A stretch of 64,000 nucleotides of DNA from the NCBI GenBank assembly GCA_903813345.2, contig CAIIXF020000001.1, positions 36,301,366-36,365,365 on the forward strand. The letters run 5' to 3'. The translations under genes were made by a program, and so were the position numbers. Source of the DNA: Owenia fusiformis. Its lineage: Eukaryota > Annelida > Polychaeta > Sabellida > Oweniidae. The notes under the pieces were generated by a model that saw only the letters and a list, made by a program, of their open reading frames with translations, was not told the DNA's origin and made no database searches. Every line of letters begins with the position of its first letter. Position 1 is the first letter of the stretch. This document shows positions 7,420-58,241 of the stretch, one piece after another.

Positions 7420-7492
7420 CCAACCTGGTGGGAATCGAACCCACAAACGCCCGATTACATGTCAGGTGCTTTACCACTTGAGCTACGGAGCC
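7420..7492 (-). repeat. tRNA-like sequence (Thr-type), probably a SINE head or tRNA pseudogene
   Basis: On the minus strand a 73-base cloverleaf can be drawn: GGCTCCG acceptor start, A box TAGCTCAAGTGG, anticodon stem CCTGA/TCGGG enclosing CATGTAA, and B box GGTTCGATTCC in a 5-bp T stem. The anticodon would be TGT (threonine). Base 33 is A instead of the invariant T, and the acceptor stem barely pairs, so this is not a functional tRNA. Sequence following on the minus strand (GGAGTGACTTTTTCACATC) may be a SINE body. Confidence 0.55.
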
Positions 7493-22064: not shown

Positions 22065-23755
22065 CTGGTAGCATATTTTCAAGAGTGCATTACCCAGATG
22101 ATCAAACACATTTTCAAGAGTGCATTACCCAGATGATCAAGCACATTTTCAAGAGTGCATAACCCAGATGATCAAGCACATTTTCATAATTGCATTACCC
22201 AGATGATCAAACACATTTTCATAATTGCATTACCCAGATGATCAAGCACATTTTCAAGAGTGCATTACCCAGATGATCAAGCACATTTTCAAGAGTGCAT
22301 TACCCAGATGATCAAGCACATTTTCAAGAGTGCATAACCCAGATGATTAAGCACATTTTCATAATTGCATTACCCAGATGATCAAACACATTTTCATAAT
22401 TGCATTACCCAGATGATTAAGCACATTTTCATAATTGCATTACCCAGATGATCAAACACATTTTCATAATTGCATTACCCAGATGATCAAGCACATTTTC
22501 AAGAGTGCATTACCCAGATGATCAAGCACATTTTCAAGAGTGCATAACCCAGATGATTAAGCACATTTTCATAATTGCATTACCCAGATGATCAAACACA
22601 TTTTCAAGAGTGCATTACCCAGATGATCAAGCACATTTTCAAGAGTGCATAACCCAGATGATTAAGCACATTTTCATAATTGCATTACCCAGATGATCAA
22701 GCACATTTTCAAGAGTATATTACCCAGATAATCAAGCTCATTTTCAAGAGTGCATTGCCCAGATGATCAAACATATTTTCAAGAGTGCATAACCCATATG
22801 ATCAAGCATATTTTCAAGAATGCATTACCCAGATGATCAAGCATATTTTCAATAGTGTATTACCCAGATGATCAAGCATATTTTCATAATTGCATTACCC
22901 AGATGATCAAACACATTTTCATAATTGCATTACCCAGATGATCAAGCACATTTTCAAGAGTGCATTACCCAGATGATCAAGCACATTTTCAAGAGTGCAT
23001 AACCCAGATGATTAAGCACATTTTCATAATTGCATTACCCAGATGATCAAACACATTTTCAAGAGTGCATTTTCCAGGTGATTAAGCACATTTTCATAAT
23101 TGCATTACCCAGATGATCAAGCACATTTTCAAGAGTGCATTTTCCAGGTGATTAAGCACATTTTCATAATTGCATTACCCAGATGATCAAGCACATTTTC
23201 AAGAGTATATTACCCAGATAATCAAGCTCATTTTCAAGAGTGCATTGCCCAGATGATCAAACATATTTTCAAGAGTGCATAACCCATATGATCAAGCATA
23301 TTTTCAAGAATGCATTACCCAGATGATCAAGCATATTTTCAATAGTGTATTACCCAGATGATCAAGCATATTTTCATAATTGCATAACCCAGATGATCAA
23401 GCACATTTTCATAATTGCATTACCCAGATGATCAAGCATATTTTCAAGAGTGCATAACCCCAGATGATCAAACACATTTTCAAGAGTGCATTTTCCAGGT
23501 GATCAAACACTTTTTCAAGAGTGCATTACCCATATGATCAAGCATATTTTCAAGAGTGCATTACCCAGATGATCAAGCATATTTTCAAGAGTGCATTACC
23601 CATATGATCAAGCATATTTTCAAGAGTGCAATACTCAGATGATCAAGCATATTTTCAAGAGTGCATTACCCATATGATCAAGCATATTTTCAAGAGTGCA
23701 ATACTCAGATGATCAAGCATATTTTCAAGAGTGCACTACCCAGTTGATCAATGCT
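22065..23755. repeat. 35-bp minisatellite with higher-order structure
   Basis: About 48 units of ACCCAGATGATCAAGCACA plus TTTTCAAGAGTGCATT. Two main variants alternate (AAGAGTGCAT and ATAATTGCAT). A block beginning near 22691 recurs nearly unchanged beginning near 23181. That offset of 490 bp is exactly 14 units. Confidence 0.95.
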
Positions 23756-27204: not shown

Positions 27205-28590
27205 TGTTGTCCAACTGAAGGTGACTTATTGTTGCCAAACTTTGGAGGGGAGTGTATATTATGTCCAACTAAATGTGACTTCTTGCTTCCAAACTTTGGA
27301 GGGGAGTGTATATTATATCCAATTGGAAGTGACTTATTGTTGCCAAATTTTGGAGGGGAGTGTACATTATGTCCAACTGAAGGTGTTGTTGCCAAACTGT
27401 TGAGGAGAGTGTATATTATGTCCAACTGAATGTGACTTCTTGTTTCCAAACTTTGGAGGGGAGTGTATAACATGTCCAACTGAAGGTGACTTTTTGATTC
27501 AAAACTTTGGAGGGGAGCGTATATTATGTCCAACTGAAGGTGACTTCTTATTGCCAAACTTTGGAGGGGAGTGTACACTATGTCCAACTGAAGGTGACTT
27601 CTTCTTTACAAACTTTGGAGGGGAGTGTATATAATGTCCAACTTAAGATGACTTCTTGTTGCCAAACTTTGGAGGGGAATGTACACTATGTCCAACTGAA
27701 GGTGACTTCTTGTTTCCAAACTTTTGAGCGGAGTGTATATTATGTCCAACTGAAGGTGACTTCTTGTTTCCAAACTTTTGAGGGGAGTGTTCATTATGCC
27801 CAACTTAAGATGACTTATTGTTGTCAAACTTTGGAGGGGAGTGTACACTATGTCCAACTGAAGGTGACTTCTTGTTTCCAAACTTTTGAGGGGAGTGTAT
27901 ATCATGTCCAACTTAAGATGACTTCTTGTTGCCAAACTTTGGAGGGGAGTGTACACTCTGTCCAACTGAAGATGACTTCTTGTTGCCAAACTTTGGAGGG
28001 GAGTGTACACTCTGTCCAACTGAAGGTGACTTCTTGTTTACAAACTTTGGAGGGGAGTGTATACTATGTGCAGCTGAAGGAGACTTCTTGTTTCCAATCT
28101 AGCGAGGGGAGTGTATATTATGTCCAACTGAAGGTGACTTTTGTTTCCAATCTTTGGAGGGGAGTGTATATTATGTCCAACTGAAGGTGACTTATTGTTG
28201 CCAAACTTTGGAGGGGAGTGTATATTATGTCCAACTGAAGGTGACTTATTGTTGCCAAACTTTGGAGGGGAGCGTATATTATGTCCAACTGAAGGTGACT
28301 TATTGTTGCCAAACTTTGGAGGGGAGTATATACTATTTGCAGCTGAAGGAGACTTCTTGTTTCCAATCTTTGGAGGGGAGTGTATATTATGTCCAACTGA
28401 AGGTGACTTCTTGTTTCCAATCTTTGGAGGAGAGCGTATATTATGTCAAACTGAAGGTGACTTCTTGTTTCCAATCTTTGGAGGGGAGTGTACACTTATT
28501 GTTTCCAATCTTTGAAAGGGGAGTGTATATTATGTTCAACAAAATGTGACTTCTTATTGCCAATCTTTGGAGAGGAGTATATACAATGTA
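27205..28590. repeat. 54-bp minisatellite
   Basis: About 25 units of CCAACTGAAGGTGACTTCTT plus GTTTCCAAACTTTGGAGG and GGAGTGTATATTATGT. Spacing is 54 bp, with one 49-bp unit near 27373-27422. Because 54 is a multiple of three and the unit has few stops, long open frames appear on both strands (up to 225 codons, repeating LEGSVYYVQLKVTSCFQT). Conservation is equal at all positions, which argues against coding. Confidence 0.95.
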
Positions 28591-34528: not shown

Positions 34529-37020
34529 GTTGTGGGGGGGGTTGCTAAATTGTAATATAGTCTATACTAGGCAGAGGGTAGTTTATAACCAGACTCTGAG
34601 CGCAGGGTAGTTTTACTGAGATCTGTTGAAATAAAACATCATGAACTTCCATATACATTCTCTATCTTTAAATGCAAATGTTTTTATAAGTTTTGGATAT
34701 TTTCTACTTCACCTGTAGAATGTTATAATAAGCATTTTGAGTTGCCATTTTGAATTAAAAGTAGGTCAATATAACAATTTTCAATTAATCTATTTTACTA
34801 TCACAGGCCTAAGTTCAAAGGGCATGGCAAATATAGAATACTTGGGCATAGCTTTCCTTCAATTGATTTATAGGCAGCTACCTTGTGAGGCAATACTGTC
34901 AGTGATTCTTTTTGAACGCACTGAACAAACTATTGCCCAGGGATTAGGATGGAATCTTGGAGCAATTAAGTCCTCTTTGTAATAGAATCACTGAACATAT
35001 ATTTTTGTCGACTTTTTGTAATCCTGAAAATAGAATCCTATGGGTGCTTGCATTTAGTAATTAATAGGCATATAGAAGATCACAATGTTGAAGGTAATGA
35101 CCTAGTGTTGATTGAACAGTTAGTTCATGGAGGACAACCCACCCTCTCTGGGACCTAACAGCTTGCTCTGTGCATGACCCTAAATTCATCAACTGTTCAT
35201 ATAAAGTTCCCTTTATCTGGATGTTGGATTATAGGGTGAAACATTTTCAATATGTTTTTATGAATTCTTGATGACTTTTTAGCATATACTGTAGAATTAC
35301 CCTTTCTAGGAGTTTAACTATGTTCATACTCTTCAAATGAGATCTAAGATATTGATGTAGCCTCAATGGTCAGTCAGAACTCAGAACACAGAATAAATCA
35401 GTAAATCAAACTATTATTTCAAGCCTATGATAAGTAATCTGGAATAAAAGAACACCAATCCTTCAATTATTTAGCCTTTAAAACTTACGATTAATAGTGG
35501 GCTGTATAGCAAGGTTGGTCGGGGTCGGGAGCTGGGGATAATTTTATTGCTTAAATATTACCATATCATCATCCTACATTAGAATCCACTCAGTCTAACA
35601 TCAATTTCTGGTGCGAAAGTTGTCATTTTTGAGTTTTACCCCCCTTGAAGACAAATTCTTGGGGGTACTATGACAAATGCTTATAACTAAAGAAGTATTT
35701 ATTTGATCATCTTCATTTTTGGCATGGGTAATAAACAGGTATGTTAAAGTAAAATTTGAAAAATTTATACAAATCGGGTGATTACTCCATTCTACAGATA
35801 ATAATTCAGGTATTTCCAAGGGTCAATTTCAACATTTTCTGAATGATGACATGAAGTGAAAATAACATTATGACCCAATGACATATTTATTGAATGTTTT
35901 TAGGCTTTAGAAAATAATTTGACTATATAAGCTAAAATAATAACATAAGAATTGTACCATATTGATAATTCTTCATCGCCATCCAGGCACAAATAAACCC
36001 CACCCCCTCCCCATTTTGAATATAAAGGTCTATACCTGAAACTTCCTCAAATAGCTATATTTCAGAAACTATTACAGCCTACATTCCAAAATTTATCATG
36101 GTGATTATACACATCATACTGTGCATAATAGACATATAATTGAGATTTATCCATTCTATAACTAATAATCAAGGTATTTTCAAGGTTCAATTTCAGCATT
36201 TTCGGAATGTCGCCATGAAGTAAAAATTACATGACCCAATGACATATTTATTAAATGTTTTTAGGCTTTAAAAAATAATTTGACTATATAAGCTAAGATA
36301 ATAACATAAGAATTGTTTGATATTGATAATTCATCATCGCCATCCGGGGATAAATACCCCCCCCCCCCCATTTGCGAAAATAAAGGTTTTTACCTGAAAC
36401 TTTCTCAAATAGCTATATTTCAGAAACTATTACAGCCTCCATTCCAAAATTTCTCTTGTTGATTATACACATCATACTCTGCATATTATACATATAATTG
36501 AAGTCTTAACACTTTTTGACCGAGTAGCTTATAATAATAGTATATTTATTAGACATCTTAGAAATCAAAATATATGTTTTAGAAGGTTGTCAGAACACTA
36601 CAAGAGAGATATTTTGGATTGTCATCATTTTTGAGAATATTACAAAAACATATTTATTTTATGCAATAATCACCTATTTTCATTTAACATAATTGAAATA
36701 CATTATCCAGCTAGTTTTAATGATTTCAGTATACATATTTAATCCTGAGATGCACTTAGGTTTGATATCCATGAAGTAATCGTTTCTTTTTTGTTTGTAA
36801 TTTATTTTCTAAGCATAAAACTATAAGCATTAAATCTGTATGCTTTAGGATATACATAATCAGTACCGATGACTAAACATTCAATTGACAACATCCAGTC
36901 AATATGCTTGACAACATTCAATAATGATTAATATGTTTGACCAATATGTTTTTGAATAACTTCACCATACAATTTGCTTGAGTATTCACTTCAACATTTG
37001 CTTCAAGCAGTTGAACATTG

Positions 37021-37541
37021 TTAGTTATCAACATCACCTGAAAAGATTTCATCTATGAGATCTGTCATATCATCATCAATTTCGTCATCTGATTCTTCGT
37101 TATAAATGTCTACCAACTCTTGTGGAAGAATAGCATTTGGATTTTCAGCCCATTGTATATCAAGTTCACCATCTTCTAGGATCCATCCATTTTGCCTTTG
37201 GTCAAAATCTATAGAGTTTCCAAGTTCTTGAAAGATTGCATGCATGTCCCCCCTCTTGACCAGCTGTTTCAGAGGGTTTATTTTTCCCTTTCTCATGAAG
37301 GCACTGGTGGTATCACACCCTGTAAAACAGTGGATACCAATCAGGGTGGCTGTGATTGGATCACCCAAACCTGCTGCAACTGTCTTCAGATCAATGAGGC
37401 GCCTCTTGTTTGAAACTCCAGTGTCAAACAGTACTTTGAGAAGTAGGCACTTGTTTGCTGTAATGTAGCAGGAGTATGAGTACATCTGTGTCTGGAGATC
37501 TGACAAGTATGGTCTTGGCCTCAGCCCCAACCTGCCTAAAT
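37021..37541 (-). pseudogene. PIN/FEN1-like (XPG-I-type) nuclease-domain gene, left-arm copy
   Basis: It contains ILVRSPDTDVLILLLHYSK, then RRLIDLKTVAAGLGDP, then GIHCFTGCDTTSAFMRKGK, then GWILEDGELDIQW and an acidic end (NEESDDEIDDDM). The S-x-D-T-D and G-C-D-T patterns are arranged as the metal-binding Asp of XPG-I/PIN folds (FEN1: 'EDMD...GSDY'). Many invertebrate genomes carry multi-copy uncharacterised proteins with these motifs, probably encoded by mobile elements. Compared with the right-arm copy it lacks the block containing LPPC. The frame changes between the DTD and GCD parts, so the gene is broken. Confidence 0.6.
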
Positions 37542-37559
37542 TGGCGTGTTCTGCATGAA

Positions 37560-38431
37560 TTTAAGAGAAGGCATAGAGGTAAAATGCAGCCACTGCTAGT
37601 GAAAGGTCCCAAAACTAAAGTCCCAAAAAATGGAAGGACTTCCTTTCAAATAGCAAAAACAAAATTCAGCTTGTCCAACTTGTCCTCGCAGAATGGAAGA
37701 AGGACAAATATGCCAAAAAATCAGAACACGCCAATTTACTTTGTCTGTCAGGAGAAGTGCTTCTTACTCACAAGTGATGGGTCACATGTTGTTAGTGAGG
37801 AAGTCCTAGACCTAAGGTGCAACCATGATGAAGCTGACACAAAATAATTCTCCATGCTTTATATGCATCAAGGCAGGTGGGGCCCAGACCATACTTGTCA
37901 GATCTCAAGACACAGACGTTCTCATACTCCTGCTTATTTACAGCAAACACCTACTTCTCAAAGTACTGTTTGACACTGAAGTTTCAAACAAGAGGCGCCT
38001 CATTGATGTGAAGACAGTTGCTGCAGGTTTGGGTGATCCAATCACAGCCACCCTGATTGGTATCCCCTGTTTTACAGGGTGTGATACCACCAGTGCCTTC
38101 ATGAGAAAGGGGAAAATAAACCCTCTGAAACAGCTGATCAGGAGAAAGGACATGCATGCAATCTTTTTTGAACGTGAAAATCTATAGTTCTTGACCAAAG
38201 GCATCTTCAAAAACTCGAAAGATTTGTGTGCATCAGTACATCAGTCTCTTCCTCCGTGCAGGTCATCCCTTGTTCAACATTGTAAAATATGTAACTACCA
38301 AGGTTACTTATGGAAGCAGTCTCACAAAGCCCAAATGAAGAATCAGATGACGAAATTGATGATGATATATGACAGATAATGAAGTCAACAATTTCATAGA
38401 TGAAATCTTTTCAGGTGATGTAGATAATTAA
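37560..38431 (+). pseudogene. PIN/FEN1-like nuclease-domain gene, right-arm copy plus single-copy centre
   Basis: The central single-copy part encodes TPIYFVCQEKCFLLTSDGSH, then RCNHDEADTK, the E-A-D-T motif that usually precedes the DTD motif in this family. The right arm continues with TILVRSQDTDVLILLL, GCDTTSAFMRKGK and a remnant LPPCRSSLVQHCKICNYQGY, matching the family's L-P-P-C...H...Y-Q...W block, and the terminal GDVDN before TAA at 38431. It lacks the GWILEDGEL block that the left copy has. Several frame changes make it non-functional. The gene orientation shows that the left arm arose as an inverted copy of the 3' end of this gene. Confidence 0.6.
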
Positions 38432-39811
38432 CAATGTTCAACTGCTTGAAGCAAATGTTGAAGTGAATGCTTATAGTTTTATGCTTAGAAAATAAATTAC
38501 AAACAAAATAGAAACGATTACTTCATGGATATCAAACCTAAGTGTATCTCAGGATTAAATGCATATACTGAAATCATTAAAACTAGTTGGATAATATATT
38601 TCAATTATGTTAAATGAAAATAGGTGATTATTGCATAATATACATATGCTTTTGTAATATTCTCAAAACTGACGACAATCCAAAATATCTCTCTTGTAGT
38701 GTTGTGACAACCTTCTAAAACATATATTTTAATTTCTAAGATGTCTAATAAATATACTAGTATCATTAGCTACACCCTAAAAAGTGTTAAGACTTCAATT
38801 ATATGTATAATATGCAGAGTATGATGTGTATAATCAACAAGAGAAATTTTGGAATGGAGGCTGTAATAGTTTCTGAAATATAGCTATTTGAGAAAGTCTC
38901 AGGTAAAAACCTTTATTTTTTCGAAATTGAATTGGGGGGGGGGGTATTTATCCCTGGATTGCGATGAAAAATTGTCAATATCAAACAATTCTTATGTTAT
39001 TATCTTAGCTTATATAGTCAAATTATTTTCTAAAGCCTAAAAACATTTAATAAATGTGTCATTGGGTCATGTAATTTTTACTTCATGGCGACATTCCGAA
39101 AATGCTGAAATTGAACCTTGAAAATACAGTACCTTTATTATTAGTCATAGAATGGATAAATCTCAATCATATGTCTATTATGCACAGTATGATGTGTATA
39201 ATCATCATGAGAAATTTTGGAATGTAGGATGTAATAGTTTCTGAAATATAGCTATTTGAGGAAGTTTCAGGTATAGACCTTTATATTCGAAATGGGGAGG
39301 GGGTGGGGTTTATTTGTGCCTGGATGGCGATGAAGAATTATCAATATGGTACTATTCTTATGTTATTATCTTAGCTTATATAGTCAAATTATTTTCTAAA
39401 GCCTAAAAACATTCAATAAATATGTCATTGGGTCATAATGTTATTTTCACTTCATGTTGACATTCAGAAAATGTTGAAATTGACCCTTGAAAATACCTGA
39501 ATTATTAACTTTAGAATGGAGTGATCAGCCGATTTGTATGAATTTTTCAAATTTTACTTTAACATACCTGTTTATTATCCATGCCAAAAATGAAGATGAT
39601 CAAATAAATACTTCTTTAGTTATAAGCATTTGTCATAGTACCCCCAAGAATTTGTCTTCAAGGGGGGTAAAACTCAAAAATGACAACTTTCGCACCAGAA
39701 ATTGATGTTAGACTGAGTGGATTCTAATGTAGGATGATGATATGGTTATATTTAAGCAATAAAATTATCCCCAGCTCCCGACCCTGACCAACCTTGCTAT
39801 ACAGCCCACTA

Positions 39812-40635
39812 TAATGTCTGATGTTAACTATTAGTACCATGGTATATTTTTCATTATACTGTATAATTTAGTACTATATAAGTGCCTGTAAATAATGCTC
39901 AACGATCGATAAAAACAAGAATATTTTAGGATTTACTATATTTTCTGGAAAAGAATATTTGCAAGGCAATTATTTAGCAAAAGAAACTGTTTACGAAATC
40001 TCACATTATGGTTAATGAACTACATTAGAAAACATAGGTTGACTTTGAGAGTCTACTGATTCAGTATCTTTAGGGAAATGACATGCATGACTACTTGCCC
40101 ATATAGAGACTATAACTCAACACAAGACGTGACCAGTCATGAATTTTTATCTAACTGACCATTTAGTGTCTATTTAGTAACAGACTAAGGACACTGGCAT
40201 GTTAAATTGCCAACTGAATCACAAAATGAAATAATTAGTTTTAAGGGTCAGGATTTTAAAAATGAAGTTATGTTTTAAGGGTCAGTCATATAGAAAGATA
40301 ATTAAATTGTATCATCTAAAACTGAGACAGATGCAAGAACTTTTGTGATTTGAATGTTTCAACATCATTGATTTGTTTTATGAACTTTGAGAAACAGTTG
40401 AAAACCAAGACAACAGACATAAGTAGACACCATATAGAGTTATGTTTTCAATAGACCTTTACTAACCATGAATCAATAAAATAAGAAGGTAAACTATAGG
40501 ATCTGCCAGAAATATTGAGTAAGCTAGTGAAGAAAATTATAAACTTTGTTAGTAAATGTTCTAGGCATATAAAAAGGAGAAAAATCGGTGTCACTGAATT
40601 TTTTTTAAATTTTCATGCATAGTGGAAAATTATTA
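39812..40635. other. no gene or clear repeat seen
   Basis: AT-rich sequence between the giant inverted repeat and the Helitron-like element. Confidence 0.45.
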
Positions 40636-46300: not shown

Positions 46301-46570
46301 AAATAGCACTTTTAAAACAAAATCTGACACAAGATGAACTCTAAATCGCTTCATAAATATTTATTACCCTCGTAAATAACTGTATAATATGAGAGTTAGA
46401 ATAACCTTATGCTTTTTAGAAAAAGTCAATAGTTTGAGATTACTTAAATGCCATATGTGTGTTAATATATTTTAATGTAGGTTAAAGACTGTTATAAGTA
46501 CATAAGTACATATTGTTAAACGTATGGCCTTGTATTAGTACTGTTTTATCTTCACAATAAGTCATTTAGT

Positions 46571-47136
46571 CATCAATTGTAAAAATGTCATAAATTGTAA
46601 CAATGTCATCAGTTGTAACAATGTCATCAATTGTAACATTGTCACCAATTGTAACAATTTCACCAATTGTAACAATGTCATCAATTGTAACATTGTCACC
46701 AATTGTAACAATGTCATCAATTGTAACAATGTCATCGATTGTAACAATTTTACCAATTGTAACAATGTCATCAATTGTAACAATGTCATCGATTGTAACA
46801 ATGTCACCAATTGTAACAATGTCACCAATTGTAACAATGTCACCAATTGTAACAATTTCACCAATTGTAACAATTTCACCAATTGTAACAATGTCATCGA
46901 TTGTAACAATGTCATCGATTGTAACTATGTCACCAATTGTAACAATGTCACCAATTGTAACAATTTCACCAATTGTAACAATGTCATCAATTGTAACAAT
47001 GTCACCAATTGTAACAATGTCACCAATTGTAACAATGTCACCAATTGTAACAATTTCACCAATTGTAACAATTTCACCAATTGTAACAATGTCATCGATT
47101 GTAACAATGTCATCGATTGTAACAATGTCTTCAATT
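46571..47136. repeat. 18-bp minisatellite
   Basis: About 31 units of ATTGTAACAATGTCACCA with variants (TCATCA, TCATCG, TTTCACCA). Runs of variants recur in blocks, pointing to segmental duplication. The unit length is a multiple of three, so open frames with six-residue repeats (SPIVTM on plus, LLQLVT on minus) appear; these are artefacts. Confidence 0.95.
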
Positions 47137-47139
47137 GTA

Positions 47140-48097
47140 ATTCCAGTGAGGTTGAAAGATTGTACTCTTTCTGTTGATTATCTTGATTTCAATATATTGT
47201 GTTATTTTTGTTTACTGGTATTATGCATATAAACCATGAGTTTAGTCTTGTCTGTATAAAAGAGTTTATAAAGTTCACAATTTTATTATCGCACCTTTTG
47301 GTTGCTTTATTGTGATCAGTTCTTTTGTTGTTATCAGAATATAAGATGATTGGATGATGGTATCATCTGAAAATATAACATTTTCATCAAAGAACTTAAT
47401 AAGCCTGGGGGGCTAAGACTTTGTGCAAGACTACCTTGTAAAGTCCAGTACAAAAATTCAAAGTGATTTGAATACATGCTGTGTTATCTTTGAAGAAGCA
47501 ATATTTCCCTTTATCCTGATTTTGAGCATGTTAATTGCTATACTATCTAAGAGATACCCCTAACATATGCTCTTGAAAGCTAATTATATCCCCAACCTTG
47601 ATAAAACCCAGAAAACACAAGCTTGCAGAAAGAGAGCATCTTTATTGATAGTATATAGCATACCTTAGACAAATTGCAAAGATAACCAACATACTGCGAA
47701 CTCTAGAATGCTATTAGAGGATGTCCCTCGGGTAATAATAGTAAAGCAGTGGAATTCCTTTGATTTTAAATTGCTTAATTTACATGTAGACGTGTTACTT
47801 TAGCACGTGTTACTTTATTTTAAATGCCATATTAGGTGTGCCACAATGAAACAAGTGCAAAAAGTGAAAATCCTGGTCATCGCAATTCCATCATGTACTA
47901 AGATTAAATAATCTTTTTACGTTCAATTATTCACCCATTCATCTCATATATTGACATAAGAATTATAAAAGTAAATTCTGAATCGATTGATTCAGAGTTT
48001 TGTATGTAAAGGATAATCAAGTATAACAGTACAATGATAAAATGTTAATGTGACATAACTCATTTGATTTTATTAATATGAAAATGTCTACTTACAC
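47140..48097. other. no gene or clear repeat seen
   Basis: Ordinary AT-rich sequence. Confidence 0.45.
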
Positions 48098-55417: not shown

Positions 55418-58241
55418 TTACATACAGAAATTCAATTCAAACATGTTTGTTTCCTTTCTCGTAACAAATAATCGTGTGGTGTCACAAATTTCATATTCAA
55501 AATTTCCCCAAAAATTGTACATGTTACTTATAAGAATGTTCAAAGCAGATTGGTCAAATCTATGACAATTCCTGTAAGCACTTCTATCTTTACTCTCTTC
55601 ATCACATTTGATTCTAGAACCAACTGGGGCGATGCATTGTGCATTTAATGCACATAATAAAAACCATTGAAAGAAATGTTCATAAGCAAATTTGGTGTTG
55701 TATATTAAAAGTGCACCACATCCATATGTAGTGCGTCCTCTCATCTCTTGCTCATCTGCTGGGAGAAACTCATACATATCAGGGTGGGTCACAGCAGATA
55801 TTTTATTTATGAATGTGTTGATAAAAAGCACCAGTCCATTTCCATTTTTCATTTTCTCCCATAGTGTCTCTGTTTCTCCTGTTTTGAAACGAATTGATGA
55901 GTCAACCCAGAATACACCTACTCTGTGCTCTGTCATCATCTCCTAAAAACACAATTCTTATAAATTATGTATATAATATTAATTACAAATACTCCTTAGA
56001 TTTTGTTATTAATTAGAAAAAAATCATTTCAATAAATTCCAAATGAAATTGATTGTTTTCAATAAGGGAGTTGCTATATAGCTGAATAAATAGATGTTAC
56101 CACTGATTTTTATTTATTATTTATTTTGTTGGCCCAGACTGCCATAGGCTTATTATGTTAAAAACCTGCAATAGTCACTTAATTTCTTGATTTATCAACT
56201 CCAATGCATGGCTTACGATGGGATGACCCTGTCAATATATATATTGTGATTAATCATGGAGATTTTGGTTGTCAAATGAATAAACCAAGGTAACATTGCA
56301 TCAATGGAGATTTGGCCCACACCTTTTTTTAGAAAAGTTGAGAAAGTCATTGAAAATGATTTAGATAACATAACTTTATGTATTATATTTTACTGAATTC
56401 AAATATGCTATTAAAAAGGAGGTTTGATATGCAAATCTCTTAAAATCCCCATAAAAACAATAAACTAGATTTCTATAAAAAAAAGTCCTCTGTTGAAAGG
56501 CATCAGGATAAAAAATTATTATATGTACATGTATATGGGTTCAAGAGATAGTGCAAAGGTTCTGCACATTACCTTGATTATGAGTGGCTTAAAGGCATAG
56601 GTCTTTATAATGGAGACATGTGGTGGATAAGCCTCAAAGTCAAACTGCCTGTACTTCACTCTACACATTGTTTTAATCTTTGCCACATTCTCATCTTCAA
56701 GGCCAATGTCATAGTAATAAATGTCTCGGTCAGGATAATATGTCTGTATGCCACCTATCAGTTCCAAGCTCTCATTAAAATGATTCCTTGATGATGCTGT
56801 TACGAATACAAAATTCTGAAGCATTTCTTCTGACAGCTCAACAAATGAAGATTCTGGTGGAGGGATTTGGAGTCTTTGAAGCATCTCTTCTGTGGCTTCC
56901 AGTGGTCTCTTTGCTCTGAAGTGTTGGTCATATAGATTATTTGTATATACAAACAGTCTTCTCTTTTGTGTCACCTGATCTGAATATGTTGCATTCCCAT
57001 CACTGTGAATGAGACTCCTTCCAACAATAAGCTTAAAATAAAGAATATCAGTCCAGTTTGATAAAACTATGTGCATACTTTGAAGTTTGGTCCCAGAGGA
57101 TTGGGATTATGATATTTTATAAAGAGTACCATCTAAATCTACATGTTTTAAACATTTTTTTTTTTAACATATTATTTATTTCCTTCATAATCAAAAAAAT
57201 ACACAAAATATCTACTACCAATCGCCATAGGCATTCTAGGTAGTTTAAATTACAATAGAGGATTAATTACAGTAATCATAGATGGTTTATTGGTAATGTG
57301 AGAGGTTGGGAGGGAGGGGGGGGGGGTTGTCACAAGATACAAATGAGAAAAACATTAATTTGATGGAAACTTATAACAGGCCTGTACAAATTGCATCACT
57401 ATATCTATCAGGATTTTCTGAGAATCAATAGTGAGTTCATTTTCATAAATTAAGTATTTGACCTGTTCTGTCTTACTAGAAATAAGTTGAGTATCAAACA
57501 ATAAATTTTGTTCACGAAGTGCAGTCATCATTTTATTACGTTCATGGGTATGGCGAGGGCAGGTTAGAATGAAATGCTTTGTGTCTTCAGTAGAGCCGCA
57601 GAGGCATTTGTTGTCAATTATTCCAGTAAAATTATGAGTTTTAAACATCACTGCCTCTTACATAATGCATCGATTAAAATGAATACATATGAAATAGTTT
57701 GAAGGCCATATACTTATTAATGGGCTTAATCAGATTGTGACCCTCCTGGTAAAGAAATTCACAACTAGTTAAAGTAAATAAGTTAACAAGTTGTAATAGC
57801 AAAATTTGCGTATTCTAATCCAGGATTGAGCCAGAATTGTTCCAATTTGAAGTCAGATGTTCTGTGTCAAACCATTTTAAAAAACTTCATCCGGAAAATA
57901 TAATTGTGTCATAAGAGAAAATAAAAATTGTATGTTTTGCATTAACATGTACTTATTATTGAAAGGCAAATTGTTCAAGGGGAATGGATCAAAAGAGCTG
58001 AATAAAAAAAAATTTGCAAATTGAAATTTATTTTTCAGTTTTCCAATATTTTTAATATGTATTGGATGTGTTTTTTTTTCAAGTGAGAAAATTATGCAGA
58101 GAAGTTAAATTCTGTAGCTTCTTGGCTTACCTTGTAATTGTTCATCATAAGATGCATGATAATAATTCCGAAAATTCCTATGGTGACGAACAATTTTAAA
58201 ATATTTTTATACCTAACTTTACAGTAAAAATAAGACAACAT
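55418..58241 (-). CDS. type II membrane glycosyltransferase-like protein (DUF1647-like), complete three-exon gene
   Basis: The exons are 58131-58241, 56573-57031 and 55418-55942 (minus strand), all joined in phase 0. Donors are AAG/GTAAGC and AAG/GTAATG; acceptors are TTTATTTTAAG and GTTTTTAG. Total is 364 residues plus TAA. Exon 1 starts at the ATG at 58241 and encodes MLSYFYCKVRYKN, then a hydrophobic anchor (about residues 15-33), i.e. a basic cytosolic tail and signal anchor typical of Golgi enzymes. Exon 2 has a stem with a possible N-glycosylation site (NAT, about 50), FVFVTASSRNHF (111-122), YYYDIGL (142-148) and YPPHV (172-176). Exon 3 has FWVDSS (201-206), a likely DxD-type site, and CHRFDQSALN (316-325). 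These blocks match uncharacterised invertebrate glycosyltransferase-like proteins (DUF1647 is my best recollection). Donor and acceptor sugars are unknown. A LINE tail lies in intron 1; a paralogue follows at 63.8 kb. Confidence 0.85.
56295..56375. repeat. dispersed repeat, copy 1 (partner at 61408-61486)
   Basis: ATCAATGGAGATTTGGCCCA with CACC, TTTTT and AGAAAAGTTGAGAAAGTCA is matched at 61408-61486 (ATTAATGGAGAACTGGCCCA, AGAAATGTTGACAAAGTCA). This copy lies in intron 2 of the glycosyltransferase-like gene; the other lies between the paralogues. Confidence 0.7.
57155..57720 (-). mobile_element. LINE 3' end inserted in intron 1
   Basis: A minus-strand frame at 57355-57651 encodes the end of a non-LTR retrotransposon ORF2: CLCGSTEDTKHFILTCPRHT then HERNKMM, the Cys-x-Cys...His-x4-Cys motif that follows the reverse transcriptase in many LINEs. 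It is followed by about 190 bp of untranslated sequence and a run of 11 A (T at 57155-57165 on plus). The element is 5'-truncated. Its orientation is the same as the host gene. Confidence 0.75.
57721..58130 (-). other. rest of intron 1
   Basis: AT-rich intron sequence between the LINE fragment and the exon 1 donor. Confidence 0.5.

What the first reader, a model, noticed from the sequence alone, without database searches (positions are those of the whole stretch)
35495..39811. Giant inverted repeat in which a nuclease-type gene was folded back on itself
About 2-kb arms, differing at about 2% near the ends, flank only 325 bp. Both arms end towards the centre in the same gene part, and the single-copy centre supplies the preceding coding sequence in frame order only for the right arm. 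So the left arm looks like an inverted copy of the gene's 3' half plus its downstream region. This suggests an element that generated its own very long terminal inverted repeats by inverted duplication, with homogenisation or recent origin. The protein family (E-A-D-T, D-T-D, G-C-D-T motifs, XPG-I-like) is abundant in invertebrates but poorly described as part of a mobile element.
Basis: partly seen in the sequence, partly recalled or inferred. Interest (0 to 1): 0.72.

Follow-up and report, generated by a model that had tools for sequence, protein, structure and literature searches.

The report
Fold-back palindromic DNA transposon family
This 4.3-kb stretch is one copy of a jumping-DNA family in which the end of the element's own nuclease-like gene was copied backwards onto the other side, making most of the element a giant hairpin that cannot make the protein yet has spread through an animal genome.

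Summary
35495-39811 is a long palindrome with a short centre and is one copy of a multicopy DNA transposon family: its ends lie at 35 or more loci of the window's 498-Mb genome (capped lists, lower bound). Of 21 loci examined, 20 have both ends (TAGTGGGCTG...CAGCCCACTA), and all 20 have identical 3-bp target duplications. Of 31 copies or part-copies, 18 hold the same loop and 18 have coding sequence on both arms, so the fold-back is a family trait, not an assembly artefact. The coding remnant shows no codon-position constraint: non-autonomous. The same genome holds intact relatives (1,429- and 1,526-aa ORFs, 0.5-0.7-kb inverted repeats, TAGTG...CACTA ends, 3-bp duplications), apparently AcademX-like, with a C-terminal FEN/XPG-like domain supported only by weak profile matches and seven invariant acidic positions. 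No intact parent was found, but the searches were capped. Centre junctions carrying inverted right-arm pieces suggest hairpin-templated copying of one arm onto the other (inferred). Galileo (P superfamily) recruits ORF ends into its inverted repeats likewise; here another superfamily does it, and most of the element is arm. New variant of a known kind.

The parts
35492..35494 (.). left 3-bp target site duplication (TAA)
35495..37523 (+). left arm: inverted copy of the 3' half of the gene, the downstream region and the terminal repeat
35780..36510 (.). ~360-bp subterminal tandem duplication in the left arm (mirrored at about 38795-39520 in the right arm)
   Evidence: (families D2-D5, D7, D8)
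36832..36980 (.). left-arm stretch without a right-arm partner
37021..37560 (-). 179-codon open frame: C-terminal part of the nuclease-like protein (GCDTTSAF motif), left-arm copy
37524..37553. type-B centre junction: 37526-37537 is an inverted copy of about 37871-37882, and 37538-37553 of 37722-37737 (coordinates read by eye)
37554..37877 (+). centre (loop): preceding coding sequence that runs on only into the right arm
37878..39811 (+). right arm: 3' half of the gene (broken frame), downstream region, terminal repeat
39812..39814 (.). right 3-bp target site duplication (TAA)

Best explanation
A copy of a non-autonomous, largely palindromic TIR DNA transposon family derived from an AcademX-like autonomous element. 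In an ancestral copy the left part was replaced by an inverted copy of the right half (3' half of the nuclease-like gene, 3' region, right terminal repeat). The likely route (inferred) is break or gap repair in which the two existing terminal repeats annealed on one strand and the fold-back primed synthesis along the other arm. The hairpin element kept both ends that the transposase needs and was then moved by a transposase supplied in trans (inferred). Shown: element boundaries, 3-bp duplications, the palindrome as a family trait, a shared loop in 18 of 31 copies or part-copies, no codon-position constraint, intact relatives with the same terminal pentamer and duplication length. Inferred: the repair mechanism, trans-mobilisation, the AcademX assignment.
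For: Ends at 35 distinct loci (two capped lists of 40, merged). Both ends in 20 of 21 loci and identical 3-bp duplications in 20 of 20. Inverted arms in all 20, from 221 bp (L025) to about 2.2 kb. In 31 copies or part-copies: coding segment on both arms in 18, on one arm in 8, absent in 5; 3' region on both arms in 23; loop in 18, each time followed by the coding segment on the same strand. Codon positions 1/2/3: minor-allele rates 2.4/3.8/2.9% over 24 arm sequences of 12 copies. Relatives: 6.6-kb element, 674-bp TIR, 1,429-aa ORF, TAGTG..CACTA, duplication TTG; 6.4-kb element, 521-bp TIR, 1,526-aa ORF, TAGTG..CACTA, duplication AAG. Type-B centres with inverted right-arm pieces in 11 of 16 readable centres. 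Nuclease domain: seven acidic positions, the only acidic ones among 28 invariant columns of 8 relatives; hhalign P 0.0004, probability 35%, against P 0.023 for a reversed control; Exonuclease 1 first among solved structures, E 0.069.
Against: No parent with an intact gene was found, so donor and helper are unknown; that search is incomplete (one search scored 150 of 287 candidates and cut its list, one search scored 33 of 1,165). The intact relatives share with this family's ends only TAGTG and, in one of two, the next G. 13 of 31 copies or part-copies gave no loop match, so a single origin is shown for the others only. No Pfam XPG match; the XPG_I model finds 8 places in the genome, none in these elements; with three relatives the profile tests gave nothing. 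No Academ reference could be compared.
Confidence: 0.82

Rival explanations
1. The palindrome arose not by fold-back repair but by recombination: two copies inserted close together in opposite orientation, the inner ends were deleted, and the outer ends then moved as one unit.
For: Gives the same final anatomy; some family copies lie near each other (for example C10:37064010 and C10:37085988).
Against: Ten of 11 type-B centres carry two short inverted right-arm pieces with a skipped stretch between them, which fits templated synthesis better than one deletion. This bears on arm extension, less on the founding event.
Confidence: 0.25
2. It is a CACTA/EnSpm-type element rather than AcademX-like.
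For: 3-bp target duplication and a TAGTG/CACTA pentamer at the termini.
Against: The pentamer is reversed (here 5' TAGTG ... CACTA 3'; CACTA elements begin 5' CACTA, recalled); three relatives gave no Pfam transposase match and end in a nuclease-like domain.
Confidence: 0.06
3. Assembly artefact: a false palindrome made by joining reads of both strands.
For: Long palindromes are a known assembly problem (recalled).
Against: The same structure with diverged arms and its own 3-bp duplication stands at many separate loci.
Confidence: 0.01

Closest known systems
Galileo (P superfamily) in Drosophila willistoni, PMC4168063 (passages and section 10 read)
   Same: Terminal inverted repeats grow by tandem repeats and by recruiting the final piece of the transposase ORF (69 bp to over 500 bp), repeated in reverse at the other end; no functional copy found there.
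   Different: Other superfamily, 7- or 8-bp duplications. In Galileo the recruited ORF piece is one variation among copies; here the coding fold-back is in 18 of 31 copies or part-copies and most of the element is arm.
AcademX lineage of Academ DNA transposons (PMC10045372, passages; the primary AcademH paper is not held)
   Same: 3-4-bp target duplications and an encoded nuclease. Curated bivalve Academ elements average 5,565 bp (PMC10294476, passages); the two intact relatives here are 6.6 and 6.4 kb.
   Different: The window element is a derivative without an intact gene; the assignment of its relatives rests on duplication length and the nuclease-like domain.
Mu killer of maize (PMC3440606, start of abstract seen in the listing)
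   Same: A partial inverted duplication of a transposase gene with terminal repeats of the master element.
   Different: Mu killer is described as silencing MuDR, with a proposed hairpin RNA; the family here is multicopy and transposing, with no RNA evidence.
Drosophila Foldback (FB) elements (recalled)
   Same: Very long inverted repeats with internal repetition and a short centre.
   Different: Duplication length and sequence differ (recalled); no sequence relation tested.

Membership tests
TIR DNA transposon | Fixed inverted termini | tested here: met
   TAGTGGGCTG..CAGCCCACTA at both ends in 20 of 21 loci
TIR DNA transposon | Fixed-length target site duplication | tested here: met
   3 bp, identical in 20 of 20; none identical at 4 bp
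AcademX | 3-4-bp target duplications | tested here: met
   and two intact relatives; definition from PMC10045372
AcademX | Encodes a nuclease (XPG/FEN type, the type recalled) | tested here: inconclusive
   seven invariant acidic positions, hhalign P 0.0004, Exonuclease 1 E 0.069; no Pfam XPG match
AcademX | Academ-type DDE/D transposase domain | not testable with these tools
   no Academ reference sequence or profile at hand; the primary paper is not held
Galileo / P superfamily | 7- or 8-bp target duplications | tested here: not met
   3 bp in 20 of 20
Autonomous transposon | Intact transposase gene in the element | tested here: not met
   179-codon fragment and a broken right-arm frame; no codon-position constraint
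Mu killer-like silencer | Transcription into hairpin RNA and small RNAs | not testable with these tools
   no expression data

The most novel reading that the evidence does not exclude
The palindromic family is a mobile, self-copying equivalent of Mu killer: read-through transcripts of its arms fold into a ~2-kb hairpin of the nuclease-gene end, feed small-RNA silencing, and helped to silence and eliminate its own autonomous parent, which was not found in this genome while the hairpin copies persist.
Probability: 0.1. Interest if true: 0.72.

Novelty: new variant of a known kind. Interest (0 to 1): 0.4.

Why it matters
It shows that recruitment of the gene's end into the terminal repeats, called a unique trait of Galileo in the 2014 paper read here, also occurs in an unrelated DNA transposon group with a nuclease-like domain, and goes as far as elements that are mostly arm. 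The two centre types give a footprint of how one arm is copied onto the other, and the parent that was not found makes it testable, with small-RNA data, whether hairpin derivatives silence their helper.

Tried and rejected
Tried without result: Pfam and NCBIfam for the window ORF and the relatives (nothing above a curated cut-off); relatives of the nuclease-like domain in viral contigs (395 pattern matches, none confirmed); AlphaFold2 of the 179-residue window ORF without an alignment (mean pLDDT 36, so no fold search was made); the primary AcademH paper (not held); papers holding 'Academ', 'XPG' and 'transposon' as whole words (0). The alignment of 1,100-bp arms was distorted by deletions and was replaced. 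The bacterial promoter scan says nothing here.

Considered and rejected: assembly artefact, because many loci show the structure; strong homogenisation of the arms, because a copy's own other arm is the (joint) nearest sequence in only 6 of 20, 3 of 24 and 2 of 16 arm sequences. The conservation of the tips (0.25% non-consensus at positions 1-20, 5.6% at 251-290) is not used as evidence of constraint, because the copies were picked by a search with the outer 207 bp (40 of 96 candidates scored).

Limits: the set of 31 is 21 elements cut at their ends (L022 without its right tip) plus 8 central part-copies and 2 joined stretches, so an arm counted as absent may lie outside a part-copy. In one search only copies with an oriented loop and both segments were used: 10 (outer), 12 (coding) and 8 (3' region) of 31; its shuffles ignore kinship among copies, and L010 and L014 share an unusual centre. 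C12:30726081, C5:12783673 and C7:16545971 were not fetched and are judged only by the hits. For C7:22639142 only 1.4 kb was read; it does not continue the gene upstream. The 8.5-kb pair of ends on C12 was read only in part (L043).
Full report
What is there. The stretch 35495-39811 is a 4,317-bp palindrome flanked by TAA on both sides. Its arms are 95.3% alike in the outer block (alignment of 1,352) and 90.9% in the coding block (alignment of 331). The outermost ~290 bp differ by 1.7%. The arms are interrupted: 36832-36980 exists only on the left, and the coding parts have lost different pieces. Each arm carries a ~360-bp tandem duplication. The stretch between the innermost paired blocks is 37524-37877.

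It is a transposon family. The outer 207 bp match at least 40 places in the window's own 498-Mb genome (40 of 96 candidates scored), and the outer 66 bp likewise (40 of 85). Merging both lists gives 35 distinct loci, a lower bound. I fetched 20 further loci and, with the window copy, examined 21. Twenty have both ends, TAGTGGGCTG...CAGCCCACTA, and all 20 have an identical 3-bp sequence on each side (12 different triplets); none is identical at 4 bp. The one without both ends, L022, lacks the right tip. Lengths run from 2,494 to 5,963 bp. All 20 have inverted arms at their ends, from 221 bp in one deleted copy (L025) to about 2.2 kb.

How far the fold-back is shared. In 31 copies or part-copies (the 21 above, 8 central part-copies, 2 joined stretches) the coding segment stands on both arms in 18, on one arm in 8 and is missing in 5; the 3' region stands on both arms in 23, on one in 7 and is missing in 1. 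The window's loop sequence matches in 18 of 31, and in all 18 the coding segment follows it on the same strand (first seen). A search of the genome with 297 bp of the loop found 25 candidate places, all scored, with 26 matches. I read this as one ancestral palindrome; for the copies without a loop match a separate origin is not excluded.

Two centre types. Sixteen centres could be read. Five (type A: L011, L024, L026, L027, C6_9963) pass from the left arm straight into gene sequence that, read by eye, encodes IKDPERRCRGK in copies such as L026 and matches SIKDIERHRRGR of the 1,429-aa relative. Eleven (type B, with the window) hold inverted copies of right-arm pieces there: ten hold two pieces with a skipped stretch between them, and L009 holds only the second. 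I read type B as a later extension of the left arm by synthesis on the right arm while the element was folded back; this, and the order A to B, is inference.

Arms do not strongly homogenise. Within copies the two arms differ by 2.3% (outer, 10 copies), 3.9% (coding, 12 copies) and 5.2% (3' region, 8 copies). Opposite arms of different copies differ by 3.1, 5.1 and 5.8%. Random re-pairing gave values this low at p 0.0005, 0.0005 and 0.0015, yet a copy's own other arm is the (joint) nearest sequence in only 6 of 20, 3 of 24 and 2 of 16 cases. So some arm-to-arm exchange or shared descent is visible, but it is small. Same-side arms of different copies are slightly closer than opposite-side arms in the coding and 3' regions (p 0.011 and 0.005), not in the outer part (p 0.48). 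The shuffles ignore kinship among copies.

The gene is a passenger. In 24 arm sequences of 12 copies the minor-allele rate at codon positions 1, 2 and 3 is 2.4, 3.8 and 2.9%, so there is no sign of protein-level selection since the fold-back. The window keeps one 179-codon frame on the left arm; the right-arm frame is broken.

Autonomous relatives. Apart from matches in family copies, the best matches of the window's 179-residue ORF are long open frames at 46% identity or less (150 of 287 candidates scored, list cut). I read two such elements to both ends. One (C2, 1,429-aa ORF) has 674-bp inverted repeats, ends TAGTG...CACTA and a TTG duplication. The other (C1, 1,526-aa ORF) has 521-bp inverted repeats, ends TAGTG...CACTA and an AAG duplication; a copy on C8 is 99.6% identical over the last 1.7 kb and stops at the same CACTA. 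Open frames with nearly the same score stand at further places (1,526 aa at two places on C8 and, with one stop, on C11; 1,317 aa on C4, 33 of 1,165 candidates scored), which suggests recent movement. Neither element is the direct parent: beyond TAGTG (and one further G in the second) the ends differ. A divergent loop-bearing place on C7 does not continue the gene upstream.

What the protein is. No Pfam or NCBIfam family is matched above its cut-off, and the XPG_I model over the whole genome reports 8 places, none in these elements. In eight relatives 28 columns of the C-terminal domain are invariant, and the acidic ones are exactly seven: D, D, E-x-D, D-x-D and D. They stand in the order and spacing style of the FEN1 active-site acids (recalled). 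Profile-profile comparison with a FEN1-like protein and host nuclease exons aligned D-x-D and G-C-D in register at P 0.0004 (probability 35%); the reversed control gave P 0.023. With only three relatives the values were 0.029 and 0.78. A profile of the eight put Exonuclease 1 first among solved structures, E 0.069, over the S-x-K-x-x-x-R and G-C-D motifs, with no single stretch significant on its own; with three relatives only unrelated chains were listed. I take the domain as probably FEN/XPG-like. With the 3-bp duplication this fits AcademX, described as making 3-4-bp duplications and encoding a nuclease (PMC10045372, passages). Bivalve Academ elements average 5,565 bp (PMC10294476, passages). 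The Academ transposase domain itself could not be compared.

Mechanism. Shown: a fold-back shared by many copies, multiplication with exact 3-bp duplications, no coding constraint. Inferred: terminal repeats such as the relatives' 0.5-0.7 kb give a fold-back primer; after a break or incomplete gap repair in the left half, the left end anneals to the right end and copies the right half up to the loop; the product keeps two good ends and is moved in trans. The rival, two opposite insertions fused by deletion, gives the same anatomy but does not explain type-B centres as simply.

Comparison. [quoted passage not shown] A similar amount of coding sequence stands in paired blocks of both arms here (blocks I3, I10, I12, I14 and I16 add up to 463 bp, part of I10 lying beyond the stop codon), in another superfamily and with all of the 3' region. 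Mu killer of maize, a partial inverted duplication of a transposase gene with terminal repeats (PMC3440606, abstract start in the listing), suggests the boldest reading: hairpin RNA from these copies may have silenced the parent that was not found. Nothing here tests that.

Noticed in passing
C1:31430899-31437327 in G000 (L066, L050) and a copy on C8 (L053): Intact 1,526-aa ORF element with 521-bp inverted repeats and a 99.6% identical copy (last 1.7 kb compared): an autonomous AcademX-like transposon that probably moved recently.
   Followed up: partly
L051, L069, L070, L071, L072: More distant relatives end in a cysteine-rich tail that L049, L050 and L073 lack; the only Pfam match to it is insignificant (TCR, E 3.5).
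   Followed up: no
window 35780-36510 and 38795-39520: Subterminal ~360-bp tandem duplication in both arms, its traces also in other copies; perhaps subterminal transposase-binding repeats.
   Followed up: no
C12:9098307-9106852 in G000: A pair of family ends 8.5 kb apart, longer than any of the 20 measured elements; perhaps a nested insertion.
   Followed up: no
window 56522-57106, - strand: Open frame matching Pfam DUF1647 (E 2.4e-22), probably an exon of a host gene.
   Followed up: no
window 7427-7486, - strand: tRNA-like match in Rfam just above the gathering score; could be a tRNA-derived SINE.
   Followed up: no
window 22070-23751, 27208-28492, 46569-47140: Long minisatellite arrays (35 bp x48, 54 bp x24, 18 bp x32); the second and third give long repetitive open frames.
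   Followed up: no
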